In this document: one piece after another, positions 21,564 to 38,657 of the stretch
Numbering within the stretch: position 1 is the stretch's first letter
Layout of the letters: each line of letters starts with the position of its first letter
Source of the DNA: Unio delphinus
Lineage: Eukaryota > Mollusca > Bivalvia > Unionida > Unionidae
Direction of reading: 5' to 3'
Assembly: GCA_029339505.1 (NCBI GenBank)
Contig: JAQISU010000094.1
Span: forward strand, 4,753,001 to 4,817,000
DNA length: 64,000 nucleotides
Position numbers and translations under genes: made by a program
Notes under the pieces: generated by a model
The model's input: only the letters and a program-made list of their open reading frames with translations
The model's database searches: none
What the model was told of the DNA's origin: nothing

Positions 21564-21867
21564 AGTACTGTAGGGGGCTACTTGAGCCTCAATGGAAAAT
21601 CCAGTCAAAAACAGCTTGGGGCACTCTAGCCTCAAACAGCTTGGGCAAATCTAGCCTCAAGGGGAATTTAACATGGGAAACTATTTGGGTCTATATAGCC
21701 TCAAGGGAAATTGAACATAGTGGGTCTATCTAGCCTCAAGGGAAATATAACATGGGAAATATTATTGGTATATGTATAGGGGACTGTAGAGTGACAAGGA
21801 CAAAATGGCGACAAAGAAAGCTACTATCTTTTCGAGATTTATGAGCGGTCCTGAAAAAGGCCTTTGG
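21564..21867. repeat. Polinton left terminal inverted repeat
   Basis: Pairs with 38218-38657. It consists largely of about 45-bp imperfect repeats built on TAGCCTCAAGGGAAATT and ends in a histone-like stem-loop module. Confidence 0.9.
21847..21862 (-). terminator. Histone-type 3' stem-loop A
   Basis: On the minus strand: CCAAA then GGCCTTTTTCAGGACC. It fits the metazoan histone consensus GGYYYUUHUHARRRCC, with UUUC loop and the CCAAA leader. One of six stem pairs is a C-A mismatch. The stem-loop lies 17 nt after the gene A stop codon. TCTCGAAAAGA (21827-21837) follows after exactly 9 nt. Confidence 0.75.
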
Positions 21868-21879
21868 ATACTTCTTCTT

Positions 21880-22449
21880 TTATTTTCTGTCGTTGTTCCA
21901 CCACCTTTTGATTTTTCCAATGATCCCCGTTTTCTTCTTTTTGTCCTCGGGAATCCAATTAGGATCTCCCATAGCTCTAAACATTTCCTTAACTTTGATC
22001 CATCTTTGATTTAGTTGATCAAAGTCCTCTTTCCTCTTTTTATTCTTTTGTTCCTTTTTCTCCTTAGCCCAGTTTTCTTTAATTTGGATCACCTGTTCTT
22101 CCATTGCCATTCTCATCATTGTTTCTGCTTTCTTTAGCTGGTCTAGACCCCACTTCACATATTCCCACTCTATCAAATGTAATGTTTCTTCTAGAAAACA
22201 CCTGACTTTGATGACATGATCAAGTGCCTGCTTCAAGTCCCCTATTCTTATATATTTTGTTTTAATACGTCTTCTTAATTTCTGGTCTTCCTCCTCTATC
22301 ATACCTTCTAATAGATCTCTTGCTAATTTCAGTTGGCTTACAAAGCCCTGGTTACTCTGAAATTCTTCCTCAAGTCTTTCCACTTCATATTCTGCATCAA
22401 GGATCCCAAACCAGCTGTCTCGGAGTTGAATAAATAAGTCGAAATTCAT
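21880..22449 (-). CDS. Polinton accessory protein A, charged coiled-coil protein, 189 aa
   Basis: The first ATG (MNFDLFIQLRDSWFG) follows a CACATCAAG context. An upstream TTG frame extension is not needed. The sequence is almost wholly helical: heptad-like EYEVERLEEEF near residues 18-30, long acidic and basic helices, and a lysine-rich stretch (KKEQKNKKRK). It ends in KIKRWWNNDRK. No enzyme motif is visible and I do not recognise the family. The gene stands alone at the left end. Its promoter region has a motif shared with gene C and a TATA tract expanded to (TA)n. Its 3' end is a histone-type stem-loop inside the terminal repeat. A structural or nucleic-acid-binding role is possible, but this is a guess. 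Confidence 0.6.
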   Translation of the reverse strand: MNFDLFIQLRDSWFGILDAEYEVERLEEEFQSNQGFVSQLKLARDLLEGMIEEEDQKLRRRIKTKYIRIGDLKQALDHVIKVRCFLEETLHLIEWEYVKWGLDQLKKAETMMRMAMEEQVIQIKENWAKEKKEQKNKKRKEDFDQLNQRWIKVKEMFRAMGDPNWIPEDKKKKTGIIGKIKRWWNNDRK

Positions 22450-22494
22450 CTTGATGTGTTCAAAATTGAATGGCTCCAAAGACCGACGATTGCG

Positions 22495-22525
<31 letters not shown>

Positions 22526-22554
22526 TAAGCACGGACGTGAAAGAAAACACCCCC
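22495..22554 (-). promoter_or_regulatory. Gene A promoter: shared upstream motif plus expanded TATA
   Basis: GGACGTGAaaGAAAACACCCC (plus-strand reading, 22533-22553) lies just upstream of a (TA)n run (22495-22523) at the TATA position. Gene C has the same motif with 19 of 21 bases identical and an ordinary CATATAAAG box. Confidence 0.6.
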
Positions 22555-22574
22555 TACATTCACTTTTCATATTA

Positions 22575-22970
22575 TATACTATTCACAAACCATATCATTT
22601 ACTATCCAAAATCACACCCTATACTAACCACACACACGGGGGAGCAGCCAAAACACACCCTATTATTTACTATACAAAATCACACCCTATACTAACCACA
22701 CACACCGGGGAAGCAGCCAAAACACACCCTATTATTTACTATCCAAAATCACACCCTATACTAACCACACACGCACCGGCGAAGCAGCCAAAACACACCC
22801 TATTATTTACTATCCAAAATCACACCCTATACTAACCACACACACGGGGAAGCAGCCAAAACACACCCTATTATTTACTATCCAAAATCACACTCTATAC
22901 TAACCACACACACACACACACCGGGGAAGCAGCCAAAACACACCCTATTATTTACTATCCAAAATCACAT
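22575..22970. repeat. 68-bp tandem repeat inside the Polinton
   Basis: About 5.5 copies of a unit containing TATTTACTATCCAAAATCAC and CACACGGGGAAGCAGCC. No gene. Fills the space between genes A and B. Confidence 0.9.
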
Positions 22971-23068
22971 CATACACCATCTAAATAGAGCCAGTGTTTA
23001 TAATCAAACTACTCCTCTCTCATACCCATTGGCAATTAACATATTATATCTTTTCTAGTTATTTGGGT

Positions 23069-23084
23069 AGCCCTGAGAAGGGCT
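23069..23084 (-). terminator. Histone-type 3' stem-loop B
   Basis: Minus strand AGCCCTTCTCAGGGCT followed by ACCCA: perfect 6-bp stem, UCUC loop. The closing G-C pair of the histone consensus is replaced by A-U, a compensatory change. It begins 27 nt after the gene B stop. The purine element ACTAGAAAAGA (23049-23059) again follows after 9 nt. Confidence 0.8.
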
Positions 23085-23111
23085 GTTTTGTAAACTTCAA
23101 AATACACCTGG

Positions 23112-23610
23112 CTAATGCTGGCATCTCCCAGGTCTAGCCCCGCACACACATCTCCTACTCCAATCGTTCTCCCAATTCACTCTTGTGATTGGGAGCGTAG
23201 CCCAATTCACTCTTGTGATTCGGGGAACAAAGGTAAACTGAGTGGCTTCACTATCCCAATCTTCCGTTTGAGGGATAGTGAAAGTCTCATTTCTTCCTCT
23301 ATTCCGCGACTGTGGTTGTTGCGGTTGTGGTTGTTGCGGTTGAGACTGTGGTTGTTGCGGTGGGGACTGTGCCTGTAGTGGACGAACTGGTTCTGGTGGT
23401 GAAGGTGTCCTCGCCATAGGTGTGACTTTGCTACTCTGTCGCATCATGCGGTGAGGCGAAATTGTCAATTTCATTTCCTTCTTTTTTTCTCTCCTCTTCT
23501 TCTTTAATCTTAGCCTCTTCTGCTATGGCTTCCATGGTCAGTTCGTCCAGGAGACGCCTAGCATTCTCCAAATGCATTTGAAGTTCTCTTAATTTTTCTA
23601 CTCTATTCAT
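23112..23610 (-). CDS. Polinton accessory protein B, coiled-coil plus Pro/Gln-rich, frame change
   Basis: Two overlapping minus-strand frames. The first (23610-23431, 59 codons) starts MNRVEKLRELQMHLENARRL and is a charged coiled coil. The second (open to 23112) is rich in PQ repeats (QPQQPQPQQPQ) and then ITRVNW repeated twice, ending CVCGARPGRCQH. The frames meet at an A7 run in a KEEEERKK stretch, so an indel, a programmed shift, or two separate proteins are all possible. The layout of coiled coil, Gln-rich middle and basic end resembles gene C. A TATA box (23703-23710) and a CACCAAAG start context precede it, and a histone-type stem-loop follows. Function unknown. Confidence 0.5.
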
Positions 23611-23702
23611 CTTTGGTGTTGATGCGTCAACGATAGGTAGCCAGACTGCTTGCTTGTTGGATTTTTACAGTTGCCACCGTCCACGCAGGGACATATGGGC
23701 AA

Positions 23703-23710
23703 CTTTTATA
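23703..23710 (-). promoter_or_regulatory. TATA box of gene B
   Basis: TATAAAAG on the minus strand, about 95 nt before the ATG at 23610. Upstream are two short palindromes: GCTACC/GGTAGC near 23712 and GGGGAGGG/CCCTCCCC near 23740-23765. Confidence 0.5.
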
Positions 23711-23769
23711 GCTACCATATCGGTAGCCATTTAGTCCCTTGGGGAGGGGTCGCTACTCCCTCCCCTCAG

Positions 23770-25370
23770 GTATTTAAGTGCTTAACTGCACTATTAATTA
23801 CTACAGGGCGTTCTTCCGAATTACTAAAAAGTAACTATCGGAAGAAATGAAGGTCCATAGGGTGGGTAGGAATAGTACCCACACACACCCACCCCTATCA
23901 ACCAATCGGAAGCATCAGTACTGGTAGCGAGGGAAAATGTTTTCTCATTTCGCTAGTAATTTAGGTGAGTCGGAAGAGGAAAAGGCGGAAAAGGCCCAGG
24001 TCCAGAAGTCGCCAGCAGTACAGCACACACAAAGAGAAAGACAGCAAAGCCACGGACGCAGTCCACGCCTGAAACGAAAAGGTCGCACTTACATCAAATT
24101 CAGTCCAGTTATACTAATGGACAGCTTAACATCCAATAATGTGTTAGCCACCTGTGCAATTAGTCAAATATCTAAGTCAAAGAATTGTTGTTTATCATCC
24201 TATCGTTCAAAAAAATCTAGTACATAAGTGTACATAAAATAAGTCCCTAACAAATTTAGAAATTAAAATGTCTAAGCGACATATCGTAGTGTAGTCAATG
24301 GTAGTTTGTTTTTGGTCATAAATTTTGTTGGAGGCGGCACCAATAAGGCCAAATTAGTCTTTTTAGGGCCACAGATAGTTGTTCAAAGAGGGGTACTCGT
24401 AACCAAATGAGTCCCCTTTTATTCAGGCAAAAGAAATATGGCAATGAAAAATCTTTTCATTGTACGACTTTCCTCATAGTGCGGTGGTGGCGGCCATGTC
24501 TGTATGACAGCTGTATCTTCTATCATACTCCTGATTATCTGGGGTAGTATTTCGCTGACGTGGTAATATCATCTTATATCATCATGTAGTCCTGTGGGAC
24601 AATCTCACTCATATTCTGTCACAACCAGTCAGCGCGCCCCAGGTTCGCCATATTGCTTAGTTTTCCATGGCTGGTTGCAATATGGTTCCATTAGCATGAT
24701 AAAGCAGCATATCAACATCCATAGAAGCCATTTCTCTTCAATTCGTAGCTTGGTGGAAGTAGAGACCGCTATTTCCTCTCCATTTCTATCCCTGCCTCAA
24801 AACAAGTTCGGGACTTATGAAATATCCACTTCGAGAAGGTCGAGGTCGCTGCCGCTATACAGGTTTCCCTCCATTTCTATTCCTGCCATAAAGCTAGTTC
24901 GGGACTTATGAAACTTCTATTTTGGGTTTTCTGTATGCTCCACCGCTGTACAAGTCGATTTTTCCTTCTGGAGTTGTGACGGGATAACATCACAACATAC
25001 GTCCTTAGCAGTAAGCCCGGGATTTCATCATGCTTTCGCACTCCCATTGTGACGTCACCAGGTCGCCAGCTCCAGAAAAGCCGTCTTACTCGGTCCGCAG
25101 TCTTCGCCTGAATGTGTGATGTGTGTGTTCCAAAAAATTACATTATCCCTATCATCACCAAAACACGCCAACTTAAAAGAAAACACTCACTCACTTTTTT
25201 ACTTGACTCATATCAATTATACATTTAACAAGTTATTTTGAAAAATACGTTGTGCTTATAGACGTACTTCAAAGAAAAGTAAAAAGAGACAGTGATTATA
25301 GACTCACTTCTATTTTTTCTAACTTCCTCGCATACCATGAGCAAATTGAATGATTAATTCTTTTCGAGAA
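23770..25370. other. Polinton region of unclear content
   Basis: A plus-strand frame at 23937-24227 (96 codons, starts MFSHFASNLGESEEEKAEKA) is Lys/Arg-rich and preceded by a CCAAT box, but no stem-loop or family match supports it. Two imperfect 60-bp copies around CCATTTCTATYCCTGCC lie at about 24758-24822 and 24851-24912. The remainder shows nothing I recognise. Confidence 0.4.
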
Positions 25371-25378
25371 TATTGGGT

Positions 25379-25394
25379 AGCCCTGAAAAGGGCT
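25379..25394 (-). terminator. Histone-type 3' stem-loop C
   Basis: Minus strand AGCCCTTTTCAGGGCT then ACCCA: perfect 6-bp stem with the canonical UUUC loop and ACCCA flank. It begins 35 nt after the gene C stop. TCTCGAAAAGA (25359-25369) follows after 9 nt. Confidence 0.85.
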
Positions 25395-25429
25395 GTTTTT
25401 TTGTGTGTACGAGGAAGGATGACAATATT

Positions 25430-25780
25430 TTATCGTCTAAGATTGCGTCCTCGTTTGGCTACACGATAGGGTCTGCTTCTTCGGAAAGAGAAAGAGAACT
25501 CTTTCGTGTCCACACGGCAGTCGACAAAACTTCTGTCTGGTTCCTGCTGATGTTGTTGCTGCTGCTGCTGCTGTTCTCTCTGCTGCTTCTGAAGTCGATA
25601 CTTCTCAGTCCATTCTTCTTTCTCTTTTTGAATTTCCTCTCTGAAGAGTTCTTCTATGAGGTCTTCCGTTACTTGTAGCATTCTCACATTCTCTATCTCT
25701 TCAGGCATTGGCATCAGATTGTGTCTGATACGATGCAGAGTGACGTAAGCTTCGTTCAGCTTAGCTAGTCTTGAGCACAT
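25430..25780 (-). CDS. Polinton accessory protein C, coiled-coil, poly-Gln, basic tail, 116 aa
   Basis: The ATG at 25780 (MCSRLAKLNEAYVTLHRIRH) is chosen because the promoter motif and TATA box lie inside the longer frame. Residues 1-60 form charged helices (TEDLIEELFREEIQKEKEEW). Residues 65-80 are glutamine-rich (QQREQQQQQQQHQQ), and the last 17 are basic (RRSRPYRVAKRGRNLRR). No catalytic motif is present and the family is unknown to me. It resembles gene B in plan. It lies next to the protease end of the core block but has its own promoter and a textbook histone-type 3' end. This suggests S-phase expression, as an inference. Confidence 0.65.
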   Translation of the reverse strand: MCSRLAKLNEAYVTLHRIRHNLMPMPEEIENVRMLQVTEDLIEELFREEIQKEKEEWTEKYRLQKQQREQQQQQQQHQQEPDRSFVDCRVDTKEFSFSFRRSRPYRVAKRGRNLRR

Positions 25781-25833
25781 CTTCGTAGGAGGATGAGTCA
25801 AACAATGGATGGCCAGACTGGAGACTACCCCTG

Positions 25834-25873
25834 CTTTATATGGTTCAAGCGCGGACGTGATGGAAAACACCCC
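25834..25873 (-). promoter_or_regulatory. Gene C promoter: shared motif plus TATA box
   Basis: GGACGTGAtgGAAAACACCCC (25853-25873, plus reading) and CATATAAAG on the minus strand (25834-25842), 54 nt before the ATG. The motif recurs upstream of gene A. Confidence 0.65.
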
Positions 25874-26001
25874 TCGACGGTTTAGGGTTTGGAAACATTG
25901 GGATTGTTTGATGTGAGGGATAGAAAGAAAAGTCAAAGAGCATTTATATGAATACAAATGTAAAACAAATGACAGACGCATTGGTTTCAAAACACAACGT
26001 T

Positions 26002-26007
26002 TTTATT
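26002..26007 (-). terminator. Poly(A) signal after the Polinton core block
   Basis: AATAAA on the minus strand, about 100 nt after the protease stop. A short AAATGTTTGTTATTTGA-like repeat fills 26008-26100. The contrast with the stem-loop ends of genes A-D is notable. Confidence 0.6.
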
Positions 26008-26105
26008 CAAATAACAAACATTTTTTCAACTAACAAACATATTTTTCAAATAAAAAACATTTTTTTCAAATAACAAACATTTTTTTCTTCCATAACACTA
26101 ATACA

Positions 26106-26663
26106 TTATCTTTGACATGGTTGACAACGTTGCGAATTAAATTGAGATTTCCACTGTTGGAAGTCATTGGGCCATTGATGTACACTACGTTTCCTAGCTA
26201 AAGACAACAGATAGCCATAATGGTCACAAAACCATCGATCTACTTTGTCATCGTTTCGAGACGAATGACGATCAAAATAAGTCACTAAATGTTCTAAAGA
26301 ATATCCAAGACAACGATGATGCAGATAATAGACACAATATTGTCCACACACCATAGAATCTGTGCTTTGTAATTTCACATTATTGAATCGTGTCGTCTGG
26401 GCATTTCTTCTCATAAAGTCAATGATATCATCTTCGAAAGGGGGTAATCCATACGAATCAAAATACTCCACACAACCCTTTTGAGGAAAGTAGACAGCTA
26501 CCCAGTGAGTTCCTGGAAGATGACTGTCATCTGTGTTGATGACATAAGCTTGATTCTCTTGAGGCTTGCGATGAGGTAGTTCATCTTTAGCACACACGAC
26601 AGGATTCCAAGAAGCAGTGTACGAACTACGGTTCAAAAGATAATAAAGTTCCCAAGTATCCAT
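26106..26663 (-). CDS. Polinton cysteine protease (adenain/Ulp1-like, family C5), 185 aa
   Basis: Virion maturation protease of the adenain type. The catalytic triad is visible: His53 in GTHWVAVYF, Asp69 in EYFDSYG, Gln99 and Cys106 in DSMVCGQYCVYYL. The start MDTWELYYLLNR is the usual N-terminus and the length fits (adenain is about 200 aa). The reading frame is open throughout, unlike several neighbours. It is the last gene of the core block, after the CxxC-type ORF, and is followed by AATAAA. By analogy it would process capsid and core proteins in particles. Confidence 0.92.
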   Translation of the reverse strand: MDTWELYYLLNRSSYTASWNPVVCAKDELPHRKPQENQAYVINTDDSHLPGTHWVAVYFPQKGCVEYFDSYGLPPFEDDIIDFMRRNAQTTRFNNVKLQSTDSMVCGQYCVYYLHHRCLGYSLEHLVTYFDRHSSRNDDKVDRWFCDHYGYLLSLARKRSVHQWPNDFQQWKSQFNSQRCQPCQR

Positions 26664-26703
26664 TTTTTGTTTCTTGTGTAGCCTTGTTTTTTTTTCCCTT
26701 TCT

Positions 26704-27201
26704 TCACAGATGATAATAAGTCATCAATTCGATCCAGATTTTTTGCTTCAAACGGTCTGGATAGTAACTGTTGGTTTGCTTCGTCTCCTTACTCTTGGCC
26801 AAGAGAGCTTCGATGCGATCAATTTCTCGAGCAAACAATGGAGGAGAGGAATGAGCACGTAAGCCTTTATACCACTGATTTAACACGGCTTCTTCTGAGA
26901 TGAGACTCCAAGCTTCGTTCAGATAATTGTCCAATTTTTCTTCTTGACTCATCATCTTACATTTATCGTGTTGAATTTGACTGGGATGATCAATTTGACA
27001 TCCATAACAATCTTTTTTAATCATGTCTCTCATTGTATCTTCCAAGTGTTGTGCAAAACAAGCCACTAACTGTTGTTCCTGTTCTGGCCATCTGGATTGC
27101 ATGATCACTACCTCTTCTTTTTGGTCTTTGGGATCTGCTTTTTCTGTAATCTCCCATTCTATGGATTCTCCACTATTCAAAGAAGGACAAGAGTCTTCCA
27201 T
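26704..27201 (-). CDS. Polinton conserved protein with CxxC..H..C motif, 165 aa
   Basis: The start lies 6 nt after the end of the capsid gene. The N-terminal 30 residues are acidic. A motif CYGCQIDHPSQIQHDKC near residues 65-81 looks metal-binding, and similar GCxxDHPSQxxH blocks are common in Polinton and adintovirus ORFs. The C-terminal half is helical, ending WIELMTYYHL. I know of no assigned function. The frame is intact. Position between capsid and protease suggests a virion or assembly role, as an inference. Confidence 0.7.
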   Translation of the reverse strand: MEDSCPSLNSGESIEWEITEKADPKDQKEEVVIMQSRWPEQEQQLVACFAQHLEDTMRDMIKKDCYGCQIDHPSQIQHDKCKMMSQEEKLDNYLNEAWSLISEEAVLNQWYKGLRAHSSPPLFAREIDRIEALLAKSKETKQTNSYYPDRLKQKIWIELMTYYHL

Positions 27202-27206
27202 AGTGT

Positions 27207-28541
27207 CTAATAGTCTAGAATGACTTCTCTCAAACTGTTGATTTCTATGGTATTATCGAATTCGGCATACAGAATGACATTCACCGTTTCGGTAAGAGGT
27301 CCTGCAAACTGAAGTTCCACACGCAGTTACCCAGATTTTATAGGGTGGAAATGTCCCTCTTCGCTGCCTTGGTCTGGAGTGAAATCAAAAGCCCACAAAG
27401 TGTAACCTTTTGCATAGTCGTCGTAGGAAATACCGTGACTGGTGTTGGTTCCTAACTGTCCTGTGGCTTCGTACAGCGACAAGTACGACCTCAAGTAATT
27501 CTTCTGTTCGCCAAAGTCGGGTTCGAAGGGTCGGGTACACAAAGTTTTGCCATCGCGACTGACTTCGATTTTGGATACTCTGCTGTGCTTAAACTGGAAA
27601 GAATTTTCATCGTCGGCACCATTGAGGGCTGCATTGCTGACGATACCGATGAATAAGCGTTTGGGTAACTGTCCTTGGAACAGATGATCTTCGATCTTAG
27701 ATCGAAGTCCAGCGGCAATGGTAAAAGTTTTGACTTCCACGCGTCGTATCGGATACTTGGCTGTCGTTCTGCTCGAAGTGTGACTGATATCATTTCCCAC
27801 TTTAGGTAACACTTCCACACGACGCACGTATAACCTGGCTTCTTGGATAATGGTTTTGTAATCGTTGGCATGAGCCATCAAATGGAAAGCAGCACTGCTA
27901 CGATTTAGTCTCAAGCGAATATCCACCCCGTTCAGCAAATACTTTTCTTGAAACCACATGTCCAAATGCAAACGATCGAACAGTTCTAAACTACGTCCTT
28001 GCAAAATTTTCTTTCGACGGTCGTTAAAGCCTACATTGTGAGGATCGGCAGGATTGTCACCCTCAGCTGCTACGGGCAAGGCTGTGTCGTTAAACTTATT
28101 TGCTGTGTCAGGTTTCCATACCACGCAAGCATCTAGATGAGTGTTCTTGGCTTCTTTTCCGTACGTCAAGAGATTTTCGAGGTACGCTCGCTAAGGTTAA
28201 GTATCCATGCTACTGCTGATCAGTTTGTTATTCATGTACAAATCCACATCGCTGAACAATGAATGCATGAAATTGTTGACAGGAGCTACTCTATAATTGA
28301 CTCCTGGATTGGTGTTGTCCGTTTTGGTTACTTTCACTTTCAAATACAAGTAACTGTTGTTGAGATCGATGTAATCTTCGGGTTGTCCTTTGATTTCAAA
28401 CTCAATGGGAGCTAAATCCATCAAAGAGGAGACGGGATGAAATTCAATCCATTGGGCTTTTTGCATGGTCATCATCGTGGGTGGCATGGCATAAAGATCT
28501 AGTTCCGACTTGGAACAGGCACAAGATTCTTGGTGCATCAT
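27207..28541 (-). pseudogene. Polinton major capsid protein (double jelly-roll), three in-frame stops
   Basis: One frame of 444 codons holds the whole gene. The N-terminal part reads DYIDLNNSYLYLKVKV and FMHSLFSDVDLYMNNKL. The middle has EKYLLNGVDIRLRLNRSSAA, the strongest capsid signature. The end reads VILDY. Stops interrupt it at 28197-28199 (TAA), 28191-28193 (TAG) and 27327-27329 (TAA). The first two fall two codons apart in the most conserved loop between the strands. No frameshift is needed, so the damage is limited to single codons. It follows the PX-like gene and overlaps nothing. Confidence 0.9.
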
Positions 28542-28565
28542 TATTTCTTTATGTGTTTGTTACTT

Positions 28566-29013: not shown

Positions 29014-29950
29014 TCAGTTGTTTGAGAATCGTTTTTGAAAATGGAGTTTCACTGTGACTTTCCCTTTGGTAAATGGAATATTTTGTCCTAGTTCTCCTCT
29101 TATAGTAATGTTGACACTGTCGAAATACGACTTACTGATGGGTAAATAATGAGGATGTACAAATTCACGGTGAACGTGATAGGTATTTCCACCTTCCTCG
29201 TTAGTGGCAGTGGTAGAATCCACTTTGAAAGGAATGACACGCAGTAACGGTACAGAGGTGTGTCCTACCACGTTGTACTCCACCACATCGGAGTACACAA
29301 ACATCAAGTTGAGTCCTTGGTTCAATTCTACAGGGAATTTAAAATATTTTGCAAAATCTACGTTACCGGTTATGGGTTGTAATATTTGCTTTTTGTTCTT
29401 GACAAATTCGATGTCTCCACCTAAAATATCAAACAATTCAGGACAAAAAGTAATGGCCATCATTTTCTCCTCTGAAAATGTCATCATGAGTCGACGAGCC
29501 ACTGGATGGTACTCAAAGGTAACACTTTTTTGGGGGATTTGTGGACTCCATGGCTTTACCAAACACAGTATTGAACCTGGTTGCAATCGTAGTCACTAAA
29601 TGTTGACCACTAAAATAGTAGTCTGCAGGAATGGTGAACACATCTGTGGACAGGGCTTTAGTTTTGGGTCCATCTGATTTCTTTTCGCCACCCTTTCCTC
29701 GTGCGTCTAAAGCATTTTGCAATTGATCGTCAATCACTTATACTGTAAAAGTGTTTTGATTTTCGACGATGTTTTTGATTTGTGTCGGGTGTATTATTTC
29801 CACTAAAGCCACTTCCCAATGAGCATCTTCATTCAAATGCATGGCTTGAGGTAATTTAGCCGTGCAACAGCATAACGTGTTGTTAGGAAACACCTTCATG
29901 GAACTGTCACTGGGTAACGTTAAGTAAAATTGGTTAATAGTGTTGTTCAT
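29014..29950 (-). pseudogene. Polinton penton (minor capsid) protein, one stop and one frameshift
   Basis: The start MNNTINQFYLTLPSDSSMKV and the WEVALVEI block are typical of the single jelly-roll minor capsid protein. A TAA at 29738-29740 interrupts it after about 70 codons. The frame then changes at a C5A6 run near 29530, and the C-terminal two-thirds (29586-29014) continue to KVTVKLHFQKRF, the usual end. It would form the capsid vertices. The ATG overlaps the stop of the upstream membrane protein. Defective in this copy. Confidence 0.88.
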
Positions 29951-30371: not shown

Positions 30372-31484
30372 TTACTTCTTTTTATAGTCGATGACTTGCG
30401 ATGCGTCAATCCAAGAATCAAAACTAGGAGGATATCCTTTCCAACGTACTTTGACTTCTTTGACACGACGTTTTCCTACTTTACGGGTTCTTCGTTCGAG
30501 AATGCTTTCAATGTCGTACACGTCGTCTTCTTTTTTGGTGACACGTTGTAACTCAGGCAAGTAAAACGTTCCTTTTAATACTTCTCCGTTCATGTCTTCC
30601 AATTTATAGACGGTAGGATGACGATCGCGCACTCGTCCAGTAACACGAAACAATTCGGTGATCCAGTTGGGTAAGTAACCTGTGTCGAAAGTGTGTTTGG
30701 TTTTGCCAATGCGTACGCAATCTTCCGTGGTTAACACTTCTCTACCTTTCTTGGGGACAGCCATCGTCCGGGACGTACCAAACAGACGCTCAAAAACAGT
30801 CACTTCGTTGTCGGGTGTCACCTCTTGTGGGGCACGTCCAATGCTTCTATGGTAAGATTGATTGTAGGCTTGAACTAAGTGCGGTAAGACGTCGATGTAC
30901 TTGAGAGTGTGTTGATGCGTAAAATATTTCCACATGCGTTTTTTCAAGGTACGTTGAAAACTTTCCACGATACTGGCTTTGGTTTCAGGATTTTCGGTGG
31001 TGAAAAAAAGAATGTCACGTTTCTTTTATTCTCGTTGGAAAGCTTGGTTCAAACATTCGGTGCCTTTGTCGGTTTGCCATCGAAGAGGGTGACGACCACT
31101 TTGTTTCAAAACCAGTTGCAAAGCTCGTACTAACTCTCCGCTCGATTTGGATGTAAATGGTACGACCCAGGCAAATTTAGAAAAGACGTCGATGACACAA
31201 AACAAATATTTGTAGCCACGATTGTAAGTGGCTAAATGAGAGACATCGGCTTAATCGGCTTGCCATTGATGATCGATGCCTTCCACTTGAGTGCGACTTC
31301 TGTGAAATTTTCGTCGAATAGGTTTGTGTAAAGTGTACGTCGCTTGTTCTTGTAACCGTCGTTGTACTGCTGGTAAACGGAGCTTTTTCAGGCGAGTTTT
31401 GGCAGCACGATACAATTTCTGAATGCCTCCGTAACCTGCAGGGTGAGCTGGATCGTAGTAAATGCTGGCTAATACCTTCTCCAT
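30372..31484 (-). pseudogene. Polinton integrase (RVE) with C-terminal chromodomain, two in-frame stops
   Basis: Retrovirus-like DDE integrase. The N-terminus has YYDPAHPAGYGGIQKLYRAA, the catalytic core DHQWQAD, then WQTDKGTECLN and NPETKASIVESF, supplying D, D and E. A chromodomain with VRWKGYPPSFDSWI ends the protein and may steer insertion to chromatin. The 370-codon frame is single, with TAA stops at 31251-31253 (next to the first Asp) and about 31027-31029. The gene cannot make a full integrase, so this copy is not self-mobile. Confidence 0.92.
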
Positions 31485-32217: not shown

Positions 32218-32226
32218 AGTGTCCTT

Positions 32227-32667: not shown

Positions 32668-32765
32668 CTTTGCTTGTTCGTTCCAGAAATACACTGTCGT
32701 CAATGACTTGGTGCACACCCTCTTTTATCTTTTTTGTTGATTGAAATGTGACAACACATGATTTC

Positions 32766-32945: not shown

Positions 32946-33021
32946 CTTTGCTTGTTCGTTTCACAATACCACAGGTGTCAATGACTGGGTACACACTCTC
33001 TTTTATCTACTTTTTTGGGAA

Positions 33022-33243: not shown

Positions 33244-33304
33244 TCTTGAGTGTTCAGCAGTAGTACAGAAAATATTGATTTCCGTTGTTGTCCTCAAGTC
33301 ATTT

Positions 33305-34191
33305 TTATACTGGAATGCGACGCCACTGATTATATTTGCGTCGTATCAACTTCATGGCAGGTAACACACGTCGTGAAGGGGTTCGCAATGGACTCAATCG
33401 GGACAGTTCTTGTTTGGACAAATCTAGTAAACTCTTTAACATGCCAGATCTTTCTTGGACTTTGACTTTGGGGGCAGGTACTTTGTGAGCAGCTGCTACT
33501 GCCGCTAATGTGGACGAGGGTGTCACCGGTGGAGGAGACGTTTTGGGAGACGCAGATTTCCAATGTTTCATCAAATTAGGAAAAACGTGTGTCAAATTGG
33601 ATTTGGCTGGCATCACCCGCAACGGAGAAGTGGAAGCACCTGAGGCTACTGACAACGTAGTCCCTGCCAAACGTCCTTGTAGATCTTCTCTTACAGGTCG
33701 TGGTTGACGAAAGTAAGGTTGCGTCCTGGCCGAAGTGCTTTTTTTGCGGGTGACCGCTTTTTTCTGTGGACTTTTCTTTTTCTGTGCTTTGGTCTTGGTA
33801 CCCTTGTTCTATTTCTTTGGAGTTCGTTTGGCTTTTTTTTTGTTGGGGTGGACTTTGGAAGCATTGGGATCCCATTTTAAAAGGGAACGAATGATGACAC
33901 CTCCTAGAGAACCACTACCTCCAGGTTTCAATATGATTTGCTTTTTGATTTGAGTGTCGATGTGAGGATCAGCCAGTTGCGTCAAGGCTACTTTGTTTCT
34001 GTCAAAAAAGCATTTGGTTTAATGTGGAATGTGAATGATGCCTTGCAGTATTTGACGTGCTGTCACCGTAAACATCGTAAGACTTCTTTGAGACTGGCTT
34101 CTAAGACGTGAGCACGTATTTGTGGATTTTTTTCGCGACTGATACCGTACAAGGCACGAATCAATGTAAGATGAGACTGAAGGGACGTCAT
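33305..34191 (-). pseudogene. Polinton larger QRGGF-type protein, frameshift and two stops
   Basis: Starts MTSLQSHLTLIRALYGISRE at 34191, a helical domain like that of small basic protein 1. The frame changes near 34072. TAA at about 34019 and TAG at about 33810 follow. Between them is LKPGGSGSLGGVIIRSLLKW, comparable to the QRGGFL region. The last part (33670-33305) is Pro/Ala/Ser-rich with a basic end RRKYNQWRRIPV. A TATAAAAA box (34231-34238) lies 40 nt upstream. Likely a minor virion protein gene, inactivated. Confidence 0.5.
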
Positions 34192-34259
34192 GATGACGAT
34201 GTATGAGACAAGGTCAAAGTGACTCAAGGTTTTTATAGATTTTTTAGTGCTTCATATGG

Positions 34260-34991
34260 TTATGTCGACGACGAGGACGTGTACACGACAGGTCCTCCGT
34301 CTTGACACCAGTCGTGAAACAAATCGGTACGAAATTGCAAATAATCAGGGGTAGTGGGTTTTAAATCCACGAGTAAATAGGCGTGTGGCGATTGAGTGGC
34401 ATCTTCGTACGCATGAGTCAGCCAAGGTGTTCCTAACTGTTTGGCTAAGACTTGCACTTGTGATTTATCTCGAGGACTTTTAAACAAGACCACGTAATGA
34501 GCATTGAGACTAATGGTACGATGGGCTTTACTTTGTTGAAATAAATTTTGTGTAATGTAAATGACACTGGCATTACGATGATGCCCTTTACGCGTAAACC
34601 ACAGTTTAATTTCTTCTTCGTCTTCTCCTAACATGTCGTCAAAAATGACCCAATGAGTTTGACTAGGGTCAGACACGATCCCCTCGTCTTCTTTAGGAAT
34701 ACCTTCCACAAACACAATGGAATCACCTTGACTTTCTTGCAAGAGGCTGTATGCCGATTGCCACTCTTTGTAACACCACACGATGCGCTGAGGTGGACGA
34801 TCGATCAAATGATGTTTATGTTCGATCAAACGTTTGACAAATTCGGTTTTGCCTGAACCGCTCGGTCCAGCAATTAACATGTTAAAAGGACGACGAAGAT
34901 ACAAGGCTTTCCAACTAGCATGATCTAAGTGTTCGTCAATGACTTTGAATGTCGAGGAGGAAGGTGTAGTAGAAATAGTAGAGTGAGCCAT
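34260..34991 (-). CDS. Polinton genome-packaging ATPase (FtsK/HerA type), 243 aa
   Basis: Walker A GPSGSGKT (about residue 43), Walker B HWVIFDDM, and the YITQNLF sensor block are all present. These mark the A32-like ATPase that pumps DNA into capsids. The ATG at 34991 (MAHSTISTTPSSS) is preferred because a TATAAAAA box (35043-35050) lies about 55 nt upstream and the longer frame starts at TTG. Open frame from start to stop. Length is normal for the family. Confidence 0.92.
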   Translation of the reverse strand: MAHSTISTTPSSSTFKVIDEHLDHASWKALYLRRPFNMLIAGPSGSGKTEFVKRLIEHKHHLIDRPPQRIVWCYKEWQSAYSLLQESQGDSIVFVEGIPKEDEGIVSDPSQTHWVIFDDMLGEDEEEIKLWFTRKGHHRNASVIYITQNLFQQSKAHRTISLNAHYVVLFKSPRDKSQVQVLAKQLGTPWLTHAYEDATQSPHAYLLVDLKPTTPDYLQFRTDLFHDWCQDGGPVVYTSSSST

Positions 34992-35042
34992 AGTCGTGTA
35001 GGGTATGACAGTATTGACACAAAAAACAGACAAGACAAGAGG

Positions 35043-35050
35043 TTTTTATA
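35043..35050 (-). promoter_or_regulatory. TATA box of the ATPase gene
   Basis: TATAAAAA on the minus strand. Similar boxes precede other core genes at 36908-36917, 35891-35900, 34231-34238 and 33302-33309. Confidence 0.55.
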
Positions 35051-35068
35051 CTTTTTTTCAAGACACGT

Positions 35069-35434
35069 TTATTTCAATGCAACACGAAAGACAAAAATAC
35101 ATAAAAGCCAAATGGATAAACACAGGAATAAAATACACAGGGAAACGATCAAAGTGGCATATAAACAAGTCACTGTACAACATTGTGTGGGTAACGAAGG
35201 TGTCCTAGAGTTAGTGTGTAATGCTCTTATAGTCTCTACATGGGGTATAGTCACATAGGTGTCTTCTCGAAAGGGTCTTTGTGGGGGAATGTCCATGACA
35301 GTTCTGTCTTGAACAGAGGGATTGTCCTGGATGACAGATTATTTCTCTTCTTCTTCTGGTACTGTCACTAACACAGGTTTAAAAGTGACTTTTTTCACTC
35401 GACGATGTATTTTACGAACACAACGCTTGGGCAT
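35069..35434 (-). CDS. Polinton small single-TM protein, possible stop at codon 32
   Basis: The frame opens with MPKRCVRKIHRRVKKVTFKP and an EEEEK stretch, meets TAA at 35339-35341, and continues to a frame with ATG at 35296 (MDIPPQRPFREDTYVTIP). The end is a hydrophobic helix (LIVSLCILFLCLSIWLLCIF) with C-terminal VFRVALK. Either two small genes or one broken gene. Not recognised. Lies just upstream of the ATPase. Confidence 0.45.
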
Positions 35435-35883
35435 AATGGGATGCTTCGTTTGTCCAAGCCTCAAAATCCCAACTTTTCCAGTCACTTACATCAGTCCAAT
35501 GAGGGTGTAAATCACAAGCTACACACACATCTTCGTACACCGCTTCCGTACGTAAAAGTTGACGAATCTTTTTTTCCTGTTGAGGTCGAGACGTATCCAG
35601 ATGAAAGCGTAAGGCTTTGAACAGAATGAGTCTCTCGTGGACATTTAAAGGAGTCACCATACTGTCTTTTGTTTGATAGGTAGTGTTCGTAAAGTGTCCA
35701 CAAAGAATCGGCAGGTAAACGAATTCCCAGAAAGCAAGTCACTAAAACACACACTACACGTCGAACCCAATTCATAGGGTACAGTTCTTGCAATAAGTGT
35801 TCGTAATCTTTCACCGTGTGAATCTTCTCATTGATATCCTTCCACGGAATCTGTTTGATCACCAGTGATTAAGGTTGTGGCAT
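35412..35883 (-). pseudogene. Polinton unknown ORF with early stop and frame change
   Basis: ATG at 35883 is followed by TAA at codon 5 (35869-35871). The frame then runs open (KQIPWKDINEKIHTVKDYEH, WVRRVVCVLVTCFLGIRLPA). Near 35660 a second frame takes over (NVHERLILFKALRFHL, ending HYAQALCS) to 35412. Helical, one weak hydrophobic stretch. Family unknown. It belongs to an accessory cluster with the BIR gene. TATAAAAGAG at 35891-35900. Confidence 0.4.
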
Positions 35884-35920
35884 GGTTGTTCTCTTTTATA
35901 CTTCTTTAGGTCGAAGATCA

Positions 35921-36289
35921 TCAGTGTATATTCTGCACAGAATCAAATCTCCTCCAAAAGCGAAAGTGATTAATATAACCTGTAATTTCGTCCCACTGCC
36001 ATTCAGGGTAACGGTTAAGAAAGATAAAAACATCTTCAGATGTAAACGTACTAAATTGGAAACAGAGCAAAAAAATACCCTTGATCCAGAGAAATCTAAC
36101 ACGTTGGTTAATTTTTGTCACTTTCCTCTTGTGAATTTCACGACACAAAAGTTCTACAGTCACCCCTTGAGATTTTTCTTTCGCAAGGCTTTGCCAAACG
36201 TCTTTGTAGATCTTCTCTTGCAATTCTTGTGGTGATCCTTGAATATTATGTTTTATATTATATACTGGTCTAGGTTTGTTCAACGACAT
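35921..36289 (-). CDS. Polinton unknown protein, 122 aa
   Basis: Starts MSLNKPRPVYNIKHNIQGSP. Predicted helical, with KDVWQSLAKEKSQGVTVELL, REIHKRKVTKINQRVRF and aromatic FLNRYPEWQWDEI near the end. No motif I can name. It lies between the BIR gene and a broken ORF and its frame is open, so it could act with the BIR protein. This is only a position-based suggestion. Confidence 0.45.
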   Translation of the reverse strand: MSLNKPRPVYNIKHNIQGSPQELQEKIYKDVWQSLAKEKSQGVTVELLCREIHKRKVTKINQRVRFLWIKGIFLLCFQFSTFTSEDVFIFLNRYPEWQWDEITGYINHFRFWRRFDSVQNIH

Positions 36290-36307
36290 GGAGCAGTAGT
36301 GTCACTT

Positions 36308-36850
36308 CTAATCACTAGGTCCTACTAAAGGTAGATATTGACAATTCGGAGACAATCGAGCATGTTCCAGGTAAGCGGAATCTTTATGTTCCCACTCGTA
36401 AATGGACACACCACAACTGAAGCACTTGACTTTATCCCCTTCGCCTAAGGTGAAAAATCCGGCTCTGGCTAATTCTTCAGGAGTTGGTCCAGGCAGATAT
36501 TTTGGCCATTTATCTTTGAAGGTTTGGAATCGACTTTTAAAGTGACAGTATTCAGGCAAACTTGTCGGGAACGAATATTCGACTCTCCTCACTTCAGTTC
36601 GATGTAGGTACGGTGAAATTCCTAGGAGTCCACGATAACGTGTGGCACCGCTTTCGCATCCCTCAGGTTTGACACGCACAGTATCACTTTCCAGGGTAGA
36701 TATAGGGGTAGTAGTCATAGCAAAGTTCCCACGATATCCTGCTGAATCGCTAAGGTCACAGCGCCTGGCATCACTACAATCGCAAGGATTAGCATCGCAC
36801 TCCACTTGAGAATTCCCAAATTTGAATGATGTCTGTTTAAATGGATTCAT
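36308..36850 (-). CDS. Polinton BIR-domain (IAP-like) protein, 180 aa
   Basis: The C-terminal 75 residues are a BIR zinc fold: FKSRFQTFKDKWPKYLPG, ELARAGFFTLGEGDKVKCF, then CFSCG, H and C in EHARLSPNCQYL, giving the C-C-H-C ligands. IAP proteins of animals and baculoviruses use this fold to bind caspases. No RING is present. The N-terminal 100 residues (Cys-rich PCDCSDARRCD and a low-complexity part) match nothing I know. ATG 36850 is chosen because an ATATAAAAAG box (36908-36917) lies about 60 nt upstream. Frame intact. Its likely job is to delay host cell death, as an inference from the family. Confidence 0.85.
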   Translation of the reverse strand: MNPFKQTSFKFGNSQVECDANPCDCSDARRCDLSDSAGYRGNFAMTTTPISTLESDTVRVKPEGCESGATRYRGLLGISPYLHRTEVRRVEYSFPTSLPEYCHFKSRFQTFKDKWPKYLPGPTPEELARAGFFTLGEGDKVKCFSCGVSIYEWEHKDSAYLEHARLSPNCQYLPLVGPSD

Positions 36851-36885
36851 CTTCTTTTCGCTTGGTCGATGTAGTGACAAATGAA

Positions 36886-37768
36886 CTATTGGTCTTGGAC
36901 AATGTCCCTTTTTATATGCTGCCCAATCTCGACGTGACCGTACGGTAGAGTGAAGTGATTGGGAAGTCGTACTCTTTTTTGGTACACGATTTGATAGACT
37001 TTTTCCAAAGGTCGGCTAACGATTTGATGTGTGGGTAAACGGACAATCTTGTGCGGTTCGTGGGTGGTCACTTTAAACGTTTCATCCTGTCCAGACTGTA
37101 AGGCTTCTTGAAGCACGTCAAAGTTCACCACTCGACTGGTGCGATAATTGAGAGTCAATCCTTTCATTTTACATTCGGTGTGCATTTCTCCTTGGGGGTC
37201 TCGGTATTCGTAAGCGTAATTTTTAGGACCGCCACTTGCAAAACATAGAATCTTGTCGTCGGGATGTTCATCGGTCCAGGCTCCTAAACGGTCTCCTTCG
37301 ATGACAGGGTTACACTGGTTCGGCCGGTGAATGTAGATGCAACTGTCCGTGTCAAAATACAACACACGATCTCCTAACAGTTCTAACACTTCGAACAATT
37401 TTAAGCGAGCGTGGGCTGTCACGTAAGCCGCAATGATGACATTGCCAAATTTGTCGGCTTCTATAAAGTCTAGTTCTTCTTCGTAATTGACTAAGATCAA
37501 GTCCTCACGAATGACGTCCACGTGTTTGATGACTTTGGTTTGGTCGTGAATCATTTGGAAGTAGCGAGACGGTTCGGACAAATACTCTGTCTTGGGTAAA
37601 GACGGTCGTTGTGCCATTTTGCCCCACAAGCAATTGAGCATCACTTTGGCAAACGATCGCCTTCATTCGTTTTTCTCAATGTGGTCTAAAGTGATGCCTT
37701 CCTGCTCCCAATAATTTTCTTTGAATATCTTTTGGTCTTCGGGAGTGTGACACCAGGAAGGATAGCCA
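36886..37768 (-). pseudogene. Protein-primed DNA polymerase B, C-terminal fragment
   Basis: The palm motifs remain: FAKVMLNCLWGKM (motif B) and YFDTDSCIY (motif C, catalytic Asp). The thumb region follows, ending HIKRDIVQDQ. Only about 290 codons are left, against more than 1000 in full Polinton polymerases. Exonuclease, motif A and the protein-priming insertions are absent. A TGA interrupts at 37663-37665. Homology stops at a 19-bp palindrome near 37768-37786, and beyond it lies the promoter of gene D. The element cannot replicate itself. Confidence 0.9.
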
Positions 37769-37802
37769 CTAGCTTCTTGCTAGTGCCTCTATATAGAAAA
37801 GG

Positions 37803-37916
37803 TGACGTCACAGACTGCTCTCTTCCGATTGGATAGCTGTGACTGACTTTTGTAACGCGCGTTTGGATTGGTCGATACACTCAAATCCATTTCGATCCGC
37901 TCTTCCCCTATAAATA
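37803..37916 (+). promoter_or_regulatory. Gene D promoter: CRE, two inverted CCAAT boxes, TATA
   Basis: TGACGTCA at 37803-37810, ATTGG (inverted CCAAT) at 37828-37832 and 37867-37871, and TATAAATA at 37909-37916, 44 nt before the ATG. CCAAT plus TATA is the usual plan of replication-dependent histone promoters. Confidence 0.6.
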
Positions 37917-37959
37917 ACCGCAGTACACAGCATTCGCTTCACCTGTTTCTCATCACAAG

Positions 37960-38193
37960 ATGTGGACTAACGTTGAATCTTCTACCCTTGTGTCTACCAT
38001 GCTGTTTCGGACTGACATACCCATGTATATCAGATCATCGTGGAGTGTCATTCATATGACGGAGACAGCCTTTTGGAAGAGAAGGGTCTATGTGGAAAGA
38101 CAAGGTTGCTTAAAGAGAGTTCTCTTCTATGGACCCACAGTGAGGAGAAGTTTAAGGAAGAGAAGAAGATCTGTGAGATGCCCTCTGTGTTAA
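37960..38193 (+). CDS. Polinton accessory protein D, small basic protein, 77 aa
   Basis: The only well-supported plus-strand gene of the Polinton. It starts MWTNVESSTLVSTMLFRTDI after CATCACAAG, a context shared with gene A. The C-terminal half is strongly basic (RRSLRKRRRSVRCPLC at the end). It is not a histone by sequence and I do not recognise the family. A compact promoter precedes it, and a histone-type stem-loop begins 27 nt after the stop. Taken together these look like a complete replication-dependent transcription unit of under 400 bp. Confidence 0.65.
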   Translation: MWTNVESSTLVSTMLFRTDIPMYIRSSWSVIHMTETAFWKRRVYVERQGCLKRVLFYGPTVRRSLRKRRRSVRCPLC

Positions 38194-38217
38194 CAAGATA
38201 ACGTTAACATTACACAT

Positions 38218-38657
38218 AATGGTCCTTTTCAGGGCCACTCATAGGTCTCGAAAAGATAGTAGCTTTCTTTGTCGCCATTTTTTCCTTGTCACTCTACAGT
38301 CCCCTATACATATACCAATCATATTTCCCACGTTATATTTCCCTTGAGGTTAGATAGACCCACTATGTTCAATTTCCCTTGAGGCTAGATAGACCCAAAT
38401 AGTTTGCCATGTTCAATTTCCCTTGAGGCTATATAGACCCACCATGTTCAATTCCCCTTGAGTCTAGATAGGCCCAAATAGTTTCCCATGTTAAATTCCC
38501 CTTGAGGCTAGATTTGCCCAAGCTGTTTGAGGCTAGAGTGCCCCAAGCTGTTTTTGACTGGATTTTCCATTGAGGCTATAAATCTTGAGGCTAGAGTGCC
38601 CCAAGCTGTTTTTGACTGGATTTTCCATTGAGGCTCAAGTAGCCCGCCTACACTACT
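38218..38657. repeat. Polinton right terminal inverted repeat
   Basis: Inverse of 21564-21867, longer because a 58-bp end segment and an inner TAGCCTCAAGGGAAATT-type unit are duplicated. Its inner edge carries stem-loop D. Confidence 0.9.
38221..38236 (+). terminator. Histone-type 3' stem-loop D
   Basis: GGTCCTTTTCAGGGCC then ACTCA. It fits GGYYYUUHUHARRRCC at every position, all six pairs form (one G-U), and the loop is UUUC. TCTCGAAAAGA (38246-38256) follows after 9 nt. Confidence 0.85.

What the first reader, a model, noticed from the sequence alone, without database searches (positions are those of the whole stretch)
21827..38256. Four Polinton genes end in histone-mRNA-type stem-loops with a fixed-distance purine element
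Seen: genes A, B, C (minus) and D (plus) are each followed, 17-35 nt after the stop, by a 16-nt hairpin (21847-21862, 23069-23084, 25379-25394, 38221-38236). A and D fit the histone consensus GGYYYUUHUHARRRCC. B and C differ only by swapping the closing G-C for A-U, a compensatory change. B and C have the exact ACCCA flank, and A has the CCAAA leader. In all four an 11-nt element (TCTCGAAAAGA in A, C and D, ACTAGAAAAGA in B) begins exactly 9 nt after the hairpin. Known: histone pre-mRNAs are cut between such a hairpin and a purine-rich element that pairs with U7 snRNA, giving mRNAs without poly(A). Inference: this Polinton lineage borrows SLBP and U7 for part of its genes and ties them to S phase. 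I do not know of a report of this in Polintons.
Basis: partly seen in the sequence, partly recalled or inferred. Interest (0 to 1): 0.92.

Follow-up and report, generated by a model that had tools for sequence, protein, structure and literature searches.

The report
Polinton genes built like histone genes
A virus-like mobile element in this animal genome ends several of its genes with the RNA hairpin and cutting signal, and starts some of them with the promoter motif, that the host uses for its histone genes, which suggests that it borrows the host's S-phase histone production programme.

Summary
In detail: four hairpins, each followed after 9 nt by the 11-mer. Three corrections. Sites A and D are the two copies of one terminal inverted repeat. 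Hairpin A has a C·A mismatch. B and C have related 3' flanks. So these are two site types, not four independent hits.

The host genome could be searched. Its H1, H2A, H2B, H3 and H4 genes end in the same kind of hairpin, with GAAAAGA (GAAAAAGA in H2A) 13-14 nt on; the Polinton spacing is 13. Gene B copies chosen by protein carry the hairpin in 20 of 20 cases, 18 fully paired; gene A copies in those elements in 11 of 11 covered ends. A host SLBP gene exists.

New: genes A and C, and B in some copies, have upstream GTGTTTTCNNTCACGTCCGYGC, whose core lies at host H1, H2A and H2B genes. It occurs 2722 times genome-wide, the reversed control 0.

Best reading: this Polinton lineage uses host histone-gene signals at both ends of accessory genes. 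No RNA data; U7 not found; other species untested.

The parts
21564..38657 (.). Polinton/Maverick insertion, about 17.1 kb, flanked by imperfect 6-bp repeats ATTACG (21558-21563) and CATACG (38658-38663)
   Evidence: TIR ends read by eye; a duplicated copy of the flank lacks the element at about 59995 (long flank matches 96.4% left and right, a second right piece 95.9%)
21564..21865 (.). left terminal inverted repeat; its inner edge is hairpin A
   Evidence: inverted repeats I1 and I2; outer end
38218..38657 (.). right terminal inverted repeat; its inner edge is hairpin D
21880..22449 (-). gene A (189 aa, charged, basic C-terminus; no Pfam match)
   Evidence: open frame, Met start; no Pfam family; homologous copies
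21847..21862 (-). hairpin A, histone type but decayed in this copy (C.A mismatch in pair 3)
   Evidence: fully paired in 10 of 11 other copies read
21827..21837 (-). histone downstream element (HDE)-like TCTCGAAAAGA of gene A
   Evidence: same core and spacing as host histone genes
22529..22550 (-). histone-promoter motif of gene A (GTGTTTTCTTTCACGTCCGTGC), upstream of an AT run and the ATG
   Evidence: exact; 0.00 expected
23112..23522 (-). gene B, 3' part of the reading frame (the upstream part lies in another frame in this copy; the open frame is 186 aa in many copies)
23069..23084 (-). hairpin B (AGCCCTTCTCAGGGCT)
   Evidence: RF00032 32.7 bits; present in 20 of 20 sampled copies, 18 fully paired
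23049..23059 (-). HDE-like ACTAGAAAAGA of gene B
   Evidence: GAAAAGA in 18 of 20 sampled copies (17 at 13 nt, 1 at 14 nt), altered in 2
25430..25780 (-). gene C (116 aa; start placed at the Met that also begins the L037 ORF)
25379..25394 (-). hairpin C (AGCCCTTTTCAGGGCT)
   Evidence: RF00032 34.9 bits, above the gathering score; also intact in L037 and L040; damaged in L039 and L094
25359..25369 (-). HDE-like TCTCGAAAAGA of gene C
25849..25870 (-). histone-promoter motif of gene C (GTGTTTTCCATCACGTCCGCGC), followed by CATATAAAGC
   Evidence: same layout in L037 (2 mismatches) and L094 (0)
37960..38193 (+). gene D (77 aa, basic C-terminus)
   Evidence: homologues in 5 of the 30 best RF00032 loci
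38221..38236 (+). hairpin D (GGTCCTTTTCAGGGCC)
   Evidence: RF00032 23.2 bits, below the gathering score
38246..38256 (+). HDE-like TCTCGAAAAGA of gene D
37887..37900 (+). CCATTTCGATCCGC before the D TATA box, identical to a stretch of the host H2B promoter; weak evidence
   Evidence: no exact match in the 5 other fetched D copies, variants only; a match within 2 mismatches arose in 18 of 100 shuffles
34260..35033 (-). A32-like packaging ATPase
   Evidence: Pfam PF04665, 29.1 bits (cut-off 22.8)
26106..26663 (-). cysteine protease of the adenain/S273R kind
   Evidence: PDB 6lj9 (cysteine protease S273R), E 1.3e-5; no Pfam match
30372..31025 (-). C-terminal part of an integrase-like protein with chromodomain
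   Evidence: PF00385; integrase identity by eye
36886..37662 (-). C-terminal fragment of a protein-primed type B DNA polymerase (truncated in this copy)
   Evidence: phrog_1907 E 4.8e-25; phi29 polymerase 1xhx E 7.5e-4
36308..37015 (-). BIR-domain protein (its open frame overlaps the polymerase frame)
   Evidence: PF00653 E 7.8e-22

Best explanation
This Polinton lineage runs a set of accessory genes at its two ends (A, B, C, D, and E in some other copies) as if they were replication-dependent histone genes. Shown by sequence: genes A-D each end, within about 40 nt of the stop, in a histone-type 16-nt stem-loop with the host's own purine element at the host's spacing, and genes A, C and (in some copies) B start with a promoter motif that the host has at its H1, H2A and H2B genes. 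Inferred: the transcripts are made by RNA polymerase II from histone-type promoters around S phase; host SLBP binds the loop; host U7 snRNP pairs with the GAAAAGA element; the histone cleavage complex cuts between them; and the mRNAs are short, without poly(A), and translated and destroyed like histone mRNAs. The 3' cassette most likely came from host histone genes and then spread between unrelated Polinton genes by recombination and through the TIR, which puts one copy at each end.
For: Host control: five histone genes of the same genome carry the hairpin plus GAAAAGA (GAAAAAGA in H2A) at 13-14 nt; Polinton 13 nt at 4 of 4 window sites. RF00032 in the whole genome: 74 matches, only 75 of 434,796 first-look candidates being scored; the 30 best loci were fetched and 29 of 30 match this Polinton, 27 by protein A or D and 2 by TIR DNA. 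Gene B copies chosen by protein (20 of 150 scored matches): 20 of 20 have the hairpin, 18 fully paired, 17 with GAAAAGA at 13 nt and 1 at 14 nt. Gene A copies reached through those B copies: 11 of 11 covered ends have hairpin and element at 13 nt, 10 fully paired. Covariation over 27 hand-picked hairpins (18 distinct, five of the 27 rows host): 93.5% of cells paired, changes on both sides at pair 1 (G-C/A-U) and pair 3 (C-G/U-A); 4 of 500 shuffles reach the covariation score. Promoter: 2 of 2 window matches (up to 3 mismatches) sit 5' of A and C, 0.00 expected; core at host H1, H2A, H2B; 2722 genomic matches against 0 for the reversed control. Host SLBP gene. No AATAAA or ATTAAA within 250 nt after A, B, C or D.
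Against: No RNA evidence. Host U7 RNA was not recognised, so pairing was not tested. Only 1 of 4 window sites passes the Rfam cut-off. Of the 15 other open frames tested, AATAAA lies within 250 nt after 2 and ATTAAA after 1, so the missing signal at A-D is weak evidence. In 9 divergent elements where the B end could be read, the stem is fully paired in only 4 by my reading; 8 keep GAAAAGA, one of them (L008) 8 nt further away. C copies: of 6 read, hairpin intact in 2 (L037, L040), damaged in 2 (L039, L094), and not seen in the next 130 nt in 2 (L024, L025, where the match also stops short of the gene's end). Gene E: intact hairpin in 1 of 5 loci (L010), damaged in 1 (L013), not found in 3 (L007, L012, L016). 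Flanks of young copies are conserved too, so selection on the hairpin is not isolated. Covariation by number of pairs or types does not exceed shuffles (223 and 290 of 500). The promoter motif was found in only 5 of 20 sampled B upstream strips and 8 of 22 A-type loci.
Confidence: 0.82

Rival explanations
1. The 3' cassette is histone-derived but idle: captured once by the TIR and by one internal gene, copied along with the element, while the mRNAs are in fact polyadenylated elsewhere.
For: A and D are one TIR site, and B, C and E share downstream sequence (by eye), so few independent acquisitions are needed. Many copies look recent (identical scores and open frames), so conservation is partly descent. 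In diverged copies some stems are broken or missing.
Against: The cassette sits 17-35 nt after the stop, in the sense strand, at 4 of 4 window genes. The same genes carry a host histone-promoter motif. Stem changes include both-sided changes at two pairs.
Confidence: 0.12
2. The hairpins serve DNA or virion biology (replication origin, packaging, recombination) or work as a simple viral transcription terminator, not through SLBP and U7.
For: One site type lies at the inner edge of the TIRs. Four of 20 sampled B-C spacer strips carry a B-like hairpin without the purine element (L086, L087, L090, L093).
Against: Internal sites B, C and E are not in the TIR. Hairpin, loop and the element 13 nt on match the host's five histone genes. 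No RNA polymerase was recognised among the proteins searched.
Confidence: 0.05
3. Chance resemblance of short hairpins.
For: Single matches of this size do arise by chance: three pattern scans of viral contigs found 3 contigs, each match inside coding sequence of a phage-like contig.
Against: 0.07 matches expected and 4 seen, with recurrence in copies sampled by protein.
Confidence: 0.01

Closest known systems
Metazoan replication-dependent histone genes (SLBP/U7 3'-end processing; Rfam RF00032)
   Same: Same 6-bp stem and 4-nt loop and GAAAAGA at the host's spacing, within 40 nt of the stop; the promoter core is shared with host H1, H2A and H2B.
   Different: The genes encode no recognisable histone and belong to a mobile element. 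Two of the sites (B, C) close the stem with A-U in place of G-C. The cassette is found on genes that show no protein homology to one another in a weak test.
Polinton/Maverick elements and adintoviruses
   Same: TIRs, an imperfect 6-bp flanking repeat, packaging ATPase, adenain-like protease, protein-primed PolB and an integrase-like protein.
   Different: Histone-type 3' ends, and histone-type promoters on end-proximal genes; no paper found that reports this (open-licence library only).
HiNF-P (HINFP) site of vertebrate H4 promoters, recalled
   Same: The core TTTTCAATC..GTCCG resembles the H4 site and the HINFP motif that I recall; HiNF-P recruits NPAT to H4 promoters (PMC5706932, passages).
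   Different: The motif comparison is from memory and no call confirmed it. Here the motif is at H1, H2A and H2B; none was found at H3 or H4.
Mimivirus-type 3' hairpin rule, recalled
   Same: A hairpin after the stop codon marks mRNA 3' ends in a DNA virus.
   Different: There, as recalled, any palindrome serves a viral enzyme; here sequence, loop and downstream element are those of the host's histone genes.

Membership tests
Histone 3' UTR stem-loop (RF00032) | covariance-model score at or above 34 bits | tested here: inconclusive
   Window: C 34.9 passes; B 32.7, D 23.2 and A (not listed) do not. Other copies of the same TIR site score up to 43.8.
Histone 3' UTR stem-loop (RF00032) | 6-bp stem, 4-nt loop of the U-rich histone type | tested here: met
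   B, C and D have 6 pairs (D with a U-G pair); A has one mismatch.
Histone-type 3' end | short distance from stop codon, sense strand | tested here: met
   17, 27, 35 and 27 nt
Histone-type 3' end | purine-rich downstream element at the host's spacing | tested here: met
   13 nt at 4 of 4 window sites; host 13-14 nt at 5 of 5 histone genes
Histone-type 3' end | element pairs with host U7 snRNA | tested here: inconclusive
   U7 gene not recognised
Histone-type 3' end | host encodes SLBP | tested here: met
   PF15247: two matches over the cut-off 1.5 kb apart at C166:1958266-1959957, read as two exons (profile 1-32 and 29-70; the weaker match contains one TAA)
Histone-type 3' end | SLBP-dependent cleavage, no poly(A) | not testable with these tools
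   no RNA data
Polinton/Maverick | terminal inverted repeats and 6-bp target duplication | tested here: met
   TIRs; flanking repeats ATTACG/CATACG agree at only 4 of 6 positions, but an empty site exists in the duplicated flank
Polinton/Maverick | packaging ATPase, adenain-like protease, protein-primed PolB | tested here: met
   (PolB only as a C-terminal fragment)
Polinton/Maverick | RVE-type integrase | tested here: inconclusive
   chromodomain found; integrase core recognised by eye only
Polinton/Maverick | double and single jelly-roll capsid proteins | tested here: inconclusive
   no Pfam match and no informative PHROGs match for 27327-28559 and 29014-29592; no fold was predicted
HINFP-regulated promoter | match to the HINFP binding motif | not tested
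   motif recalled only; searches gave no sequence

The most novel reading that the evidence does not exclude
A virus-like element has taken over the whole histone gene-expression programme of its animal host, promoter and poly(A)-independent 3' end alike, as a cassette that moves between unrelated genes. That would put its accessory (perhaps DNA-binding) proteins on the S-phase schedule and possibly bring its DNA to histone locus bodies. The promoter motif has 2722 copies in the genome; if most of them are in Polintons, as the listed part suggests, the element may also compete with histone genes for SLBP, U7 and promoter factors.
Probability: 0.55. Interest if true: 0.93.

Novelty: new variant of a known kind. 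Interest (0 to 1): 0.86.

Why it matters
Histone mRNAs are the known metazoan mRNAs without poly(A), and their hairpin and U7 element have been treated as the private signal of histone genes (recalled). A mobile element with the same promoter core, hairpin and element would be a natural, repeatedly copied test of which parts suffice, would show how a DNA element could time its genes to S phase with host signals, and would explain why poly(A)-selected RNA data could miss these genes. It also warns that genome-wide histone stem-loop searches count transposons: here 29 of the 30 best-scoring loci were Polinton copies, not histone genes.

Tried and rejected
Close relatives of the ATPase in viral contigs: none. 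Hairpin patterns in viral contigs: three scans gave 1, 2 and 0 contigs, each match inside coding sequence of a phage-like contig. ATPase in phage records: none. Protein database search: switched off, so relatives in other animals could not be sought.

U7: RF00066 gave 5 weak matches, best E 0.7, with 12 of 14 control genomes also ringing; I looked at 4 of 5. Two pattern searches gave 83 and 9 matches (reversed controls 19 and 33); I looked at 6 of 83 and at 8 of 9; the ninth is L106, seen. None has a convincing 3' stem. In the two loci read of the commonest match (L109, L111) it is a stretch of the Polinton integrase gene, by eye.

Paralogy of A, B, C, D and E as the reason for shared 3' ends: seven profile comparisons, all with probability under 1% on very small alignments, so not shown.

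Descent from particular host histone genes: downstream flanks of E and B resemble H3 more than shuffles do (1 and 8 of 2000 shuffles reach the score), one TIR copy less clearly (42), while C and the other TIR copy do not (281 and 229). Suggestive only.

D promoter: the 14-mer shared with H2B is weak (18 of 100 shuffles of the window give a match within 2 mismatches), and shared 13-mers between histone unit and window are not confined to the element (17 inside, 26 outside).

Not answered although tried: genome-wide count of hairpin plus element, gene D and gene A searches: machine busy.


Full report
WHAT IS THERE. The degenerate histone hairpin pattern has exactly four matches in 64 kb, against 0.07 expected. 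They lie 17, 27, 35 and 27 nt after the stop codons of A, B, C and D, on the coding strand, and the 11-mer starts 9 nt after each hairpin, so GAAAAGA starts 13 nt after it. Rfam RF00032 gives C 34.9 bits (cut-off 34), B 32.7, D 23.2, and does not list A.

CORRECTIONS. A and D are not independent: their hairpins are the inner edge of the two terminal inverted repeats. Hairpin A fits the letter consensus but has a C·A mismatch and is decayed. B and C share sequence beyond the purine element (by eye), and a B copy with a C-like downstream sequence exists (L049). The window copy as a whole looks old and damaged: the polymerase is a C-terminal fragment, and gene B and the region that I take for the capsid lie in more than one frame.

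THE ELEMENT. It is an insertion of about 17.1 kb (21564-38657). One arm of a local duplication holds it and the other, at about 59995, does not. The flanking 6-bp repeats agree at 4 of 6 positions. It carries a packaging ATPase, a cysteine protease like the S273R protease in the PDB (E 1.3e-5), a protein-primed PolB fragment, a chromodomain protein that reads as the end of an integrase, and a BIR protein. That is a Polinton. The capsid proteins were not confirmed. The family is large: 26,070 first-look candidates for the ATPase and 2773 for gene B, of which only 148 and 150 were scored, many with identical scores and open frames.

THE HOST CONTROL. The window's own genome (2.5 Gb) could be searched. 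Its histone repeat on contig C15 holds H1, H2A, H2B, H3 and H4. All five end in the hairpin, with GAAAAGA 13 nt (H2B, H3, H4) or 14 nt (H1; H2A with GAAAAAGA) after it. The Polinton's 11-mer thus contains the host's own histone downstream core, at the host's spacing. Of the 30 best RF00032 loci in the genome, 29 are ends of this Polinton: 22 with gene A, 5 with gene D, 2 by TIR DNA only. L009 is unexplained. The other 44 of the 74 matches were not read, apart from the C15 cluster, which accounts for 6 of them.

COPIES CHOSEN WITHOUT LOOKING FOR HAIRPINS. From 150 scored gene B matches I took 20 across the list. All 20 have the hairpin 59-67 nt into the fetched strip; 18 are fully paired; GAAAAGA is at 13 nt in 17, at 14 nt in 1, and altered in 2. 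In the same 20 elements the strip fetched for gene A covered the gene's end in 11, and 11 of 11 have hairpin and GAAAAGA at 13 nt, 10 fully paired. The strips meant for gene C mostly missed it. These are close relatives for the most part.

RESULTS THAT ARE LESS TIDY. In 9 divergent elements the B stem is fully paired in 4 by my reading, and GAAAAGA is kept in 8, in one of them (L008) 8 nt further away. Gene C was read in 6 other copies: hairpin intact in 2 (L037, L040), damaged in 2 (L039, L094), and not seen within 130 nt in 2 (L024, L025) where the match stops short of the gene's end. Over 27 hairpins picked by hand to include variants, 5 of them host (18 distinct rows), 93.5% of cells pair and pairs 1 and 3 show changes on both sides; 4 of 500 shuffles reach the covariation score and 4 the percentage paired, but 223 and 290 of 500 reach the counts of pairs and of types.

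A FIFTH GENE. Copies L013, L010, L007, L012 and L016 hold a gene E or its remains, divergent from D, not found in the window copy. It ends in an intact hairpin and element in L010 and in a damaged one in L013; none was found after it in the other three. A, B, C, D and E show no protein homology in the seven pairs compared, a weak test, yet B, C and E share parts of their 3' flanks by eye. The 3' cassette itself seems to have moved between genes.

THE PROMOTERS. Upstream of A and C lies GTGTTTTCNNTCACGTCCGYGC, followed within about 20 nt by a TATA-like stretch in the copies read. These are the only two matches in the window within 3 mismatches, with 0.00 expected. The host histone unit has the core at H1, H2B (1 mismatch) and H2A (opposite strand), and none within 3 mismatches at H3 or H4. 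Genome-wide the 22-mer has 2722 exact matches and the reversed control none; in the listed part they often come in same-strand pairs roughly 740-915 bp apart, as expected for the C and B promoters of one element (one such pair was placed at gene B of the C1 copy, L138). Which of the 2722 lie in Polintons was not checked one by one. Sampled: 5 of 20 B upstream strips have it with 0-1 mismatches, the other 15 have best matches of 7-8 mismatches, which is control level; I did not check that each strip reaches the promoter. Of 22 A-type loci 8 have it with 0-3 mismatches, sense strand only; best antisense or reversed matches over all 22 have 4-7. Gene D has another stretch, CCATTTCGATCCGC, identical to the H2B promoter, but the 5 other D copies have variants, and the match is weak by shuffling. 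The core resembles, from memory, the HiNF-P site of vertebrate H4 genes; a review says that HiNF-P is required to bring NPAT to H4 promoters (PMC5706932, passages). No call confirmed the motif.

HOW IT MOST LIKELY WORKS. Shown: the cis signals, their spacing, their sense orientation after stop codons, their match to the host's histone genes, and a host SLBP gene. Inferred: S-phase transcription, SLBP binding, U7-guided cleavage between hairpin and element, mRNA without poly(A). Histone pre-mRNA processing needs a stem-loop and a histone downstream element (PMC9756948, passages including the abstract). Products A and D have basic C-termini, so DNA binding in virions or nuclei is a guess.

WHAT IS NOT SHOWN. 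No RNA data. U7 was not found. No other species could be tested: the protein database was off, the ATPase found nothing in IMG/VR and hairpin patterns found only phage-like contigs there. That the host is a mollusc was not tested.

NOVELTY. Full-text searches gave no paper with Polinton and 'histone mRNA' (0), none with Polinton and SLBP (0), and 3 with Polinton, histone and stem-loop, whose titles and abstract starts concern other matters; I did not open these three. Related searches listed nothing on this subject. The library holds open-licence papers only. Each part is known; the combination is, as far as I could find, unreported.

Noticed in passing
window 9200-21560 / 48000-59900 and 38660-43500 / 59995-64000: The Polinton sits in one arm of a large direct duplication; the other arm is uninterrupted and gives the empty site (flanks about 96% identical).
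   Followed up: partly
L086, L087, L090, L093 (B-C spacer strips): A B-like hairpin (AGCCCTTCTCAGGGCT or one change) without a purine element, in 4 of 20 sampled spacer strips. Origin unknown.
   Followed up: partly
window 24359-24374 (+): CTTTTTAGGGCCACA, a remnant that looks like the 3' half of a histone hairpin, on the plus strand between B and C.
   Followed up: no
window 36308-37015 (-): BIR-domain (inhibitor-of-apoptosis type) open frame overlapping the end of the polymerase frame.
   Followed up: no
G000, gene B 3' flanks (L042-L061): A conserved block with an inverted repeat (AGTGTGATTATAAACACT) lies downstream of the purine element in most B copies read; function unknown.
   Followed up: no
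L043, L045, L094, L097: The histone-promoter motif is repeated 67 nt apart in the spacers, as if multiplied in a tandem array.
   Followed up: no
L009:1506-1521: A strong RF00032 match (43.1 bits) that matches no part of the window element; its gene was not identified.
   Followed up: partly
G000, ATPase matches: Very many ATPase copies with identical scores and open frames among the 148 scored: probably a recent burst of this Polinton family.
   Followed up: no
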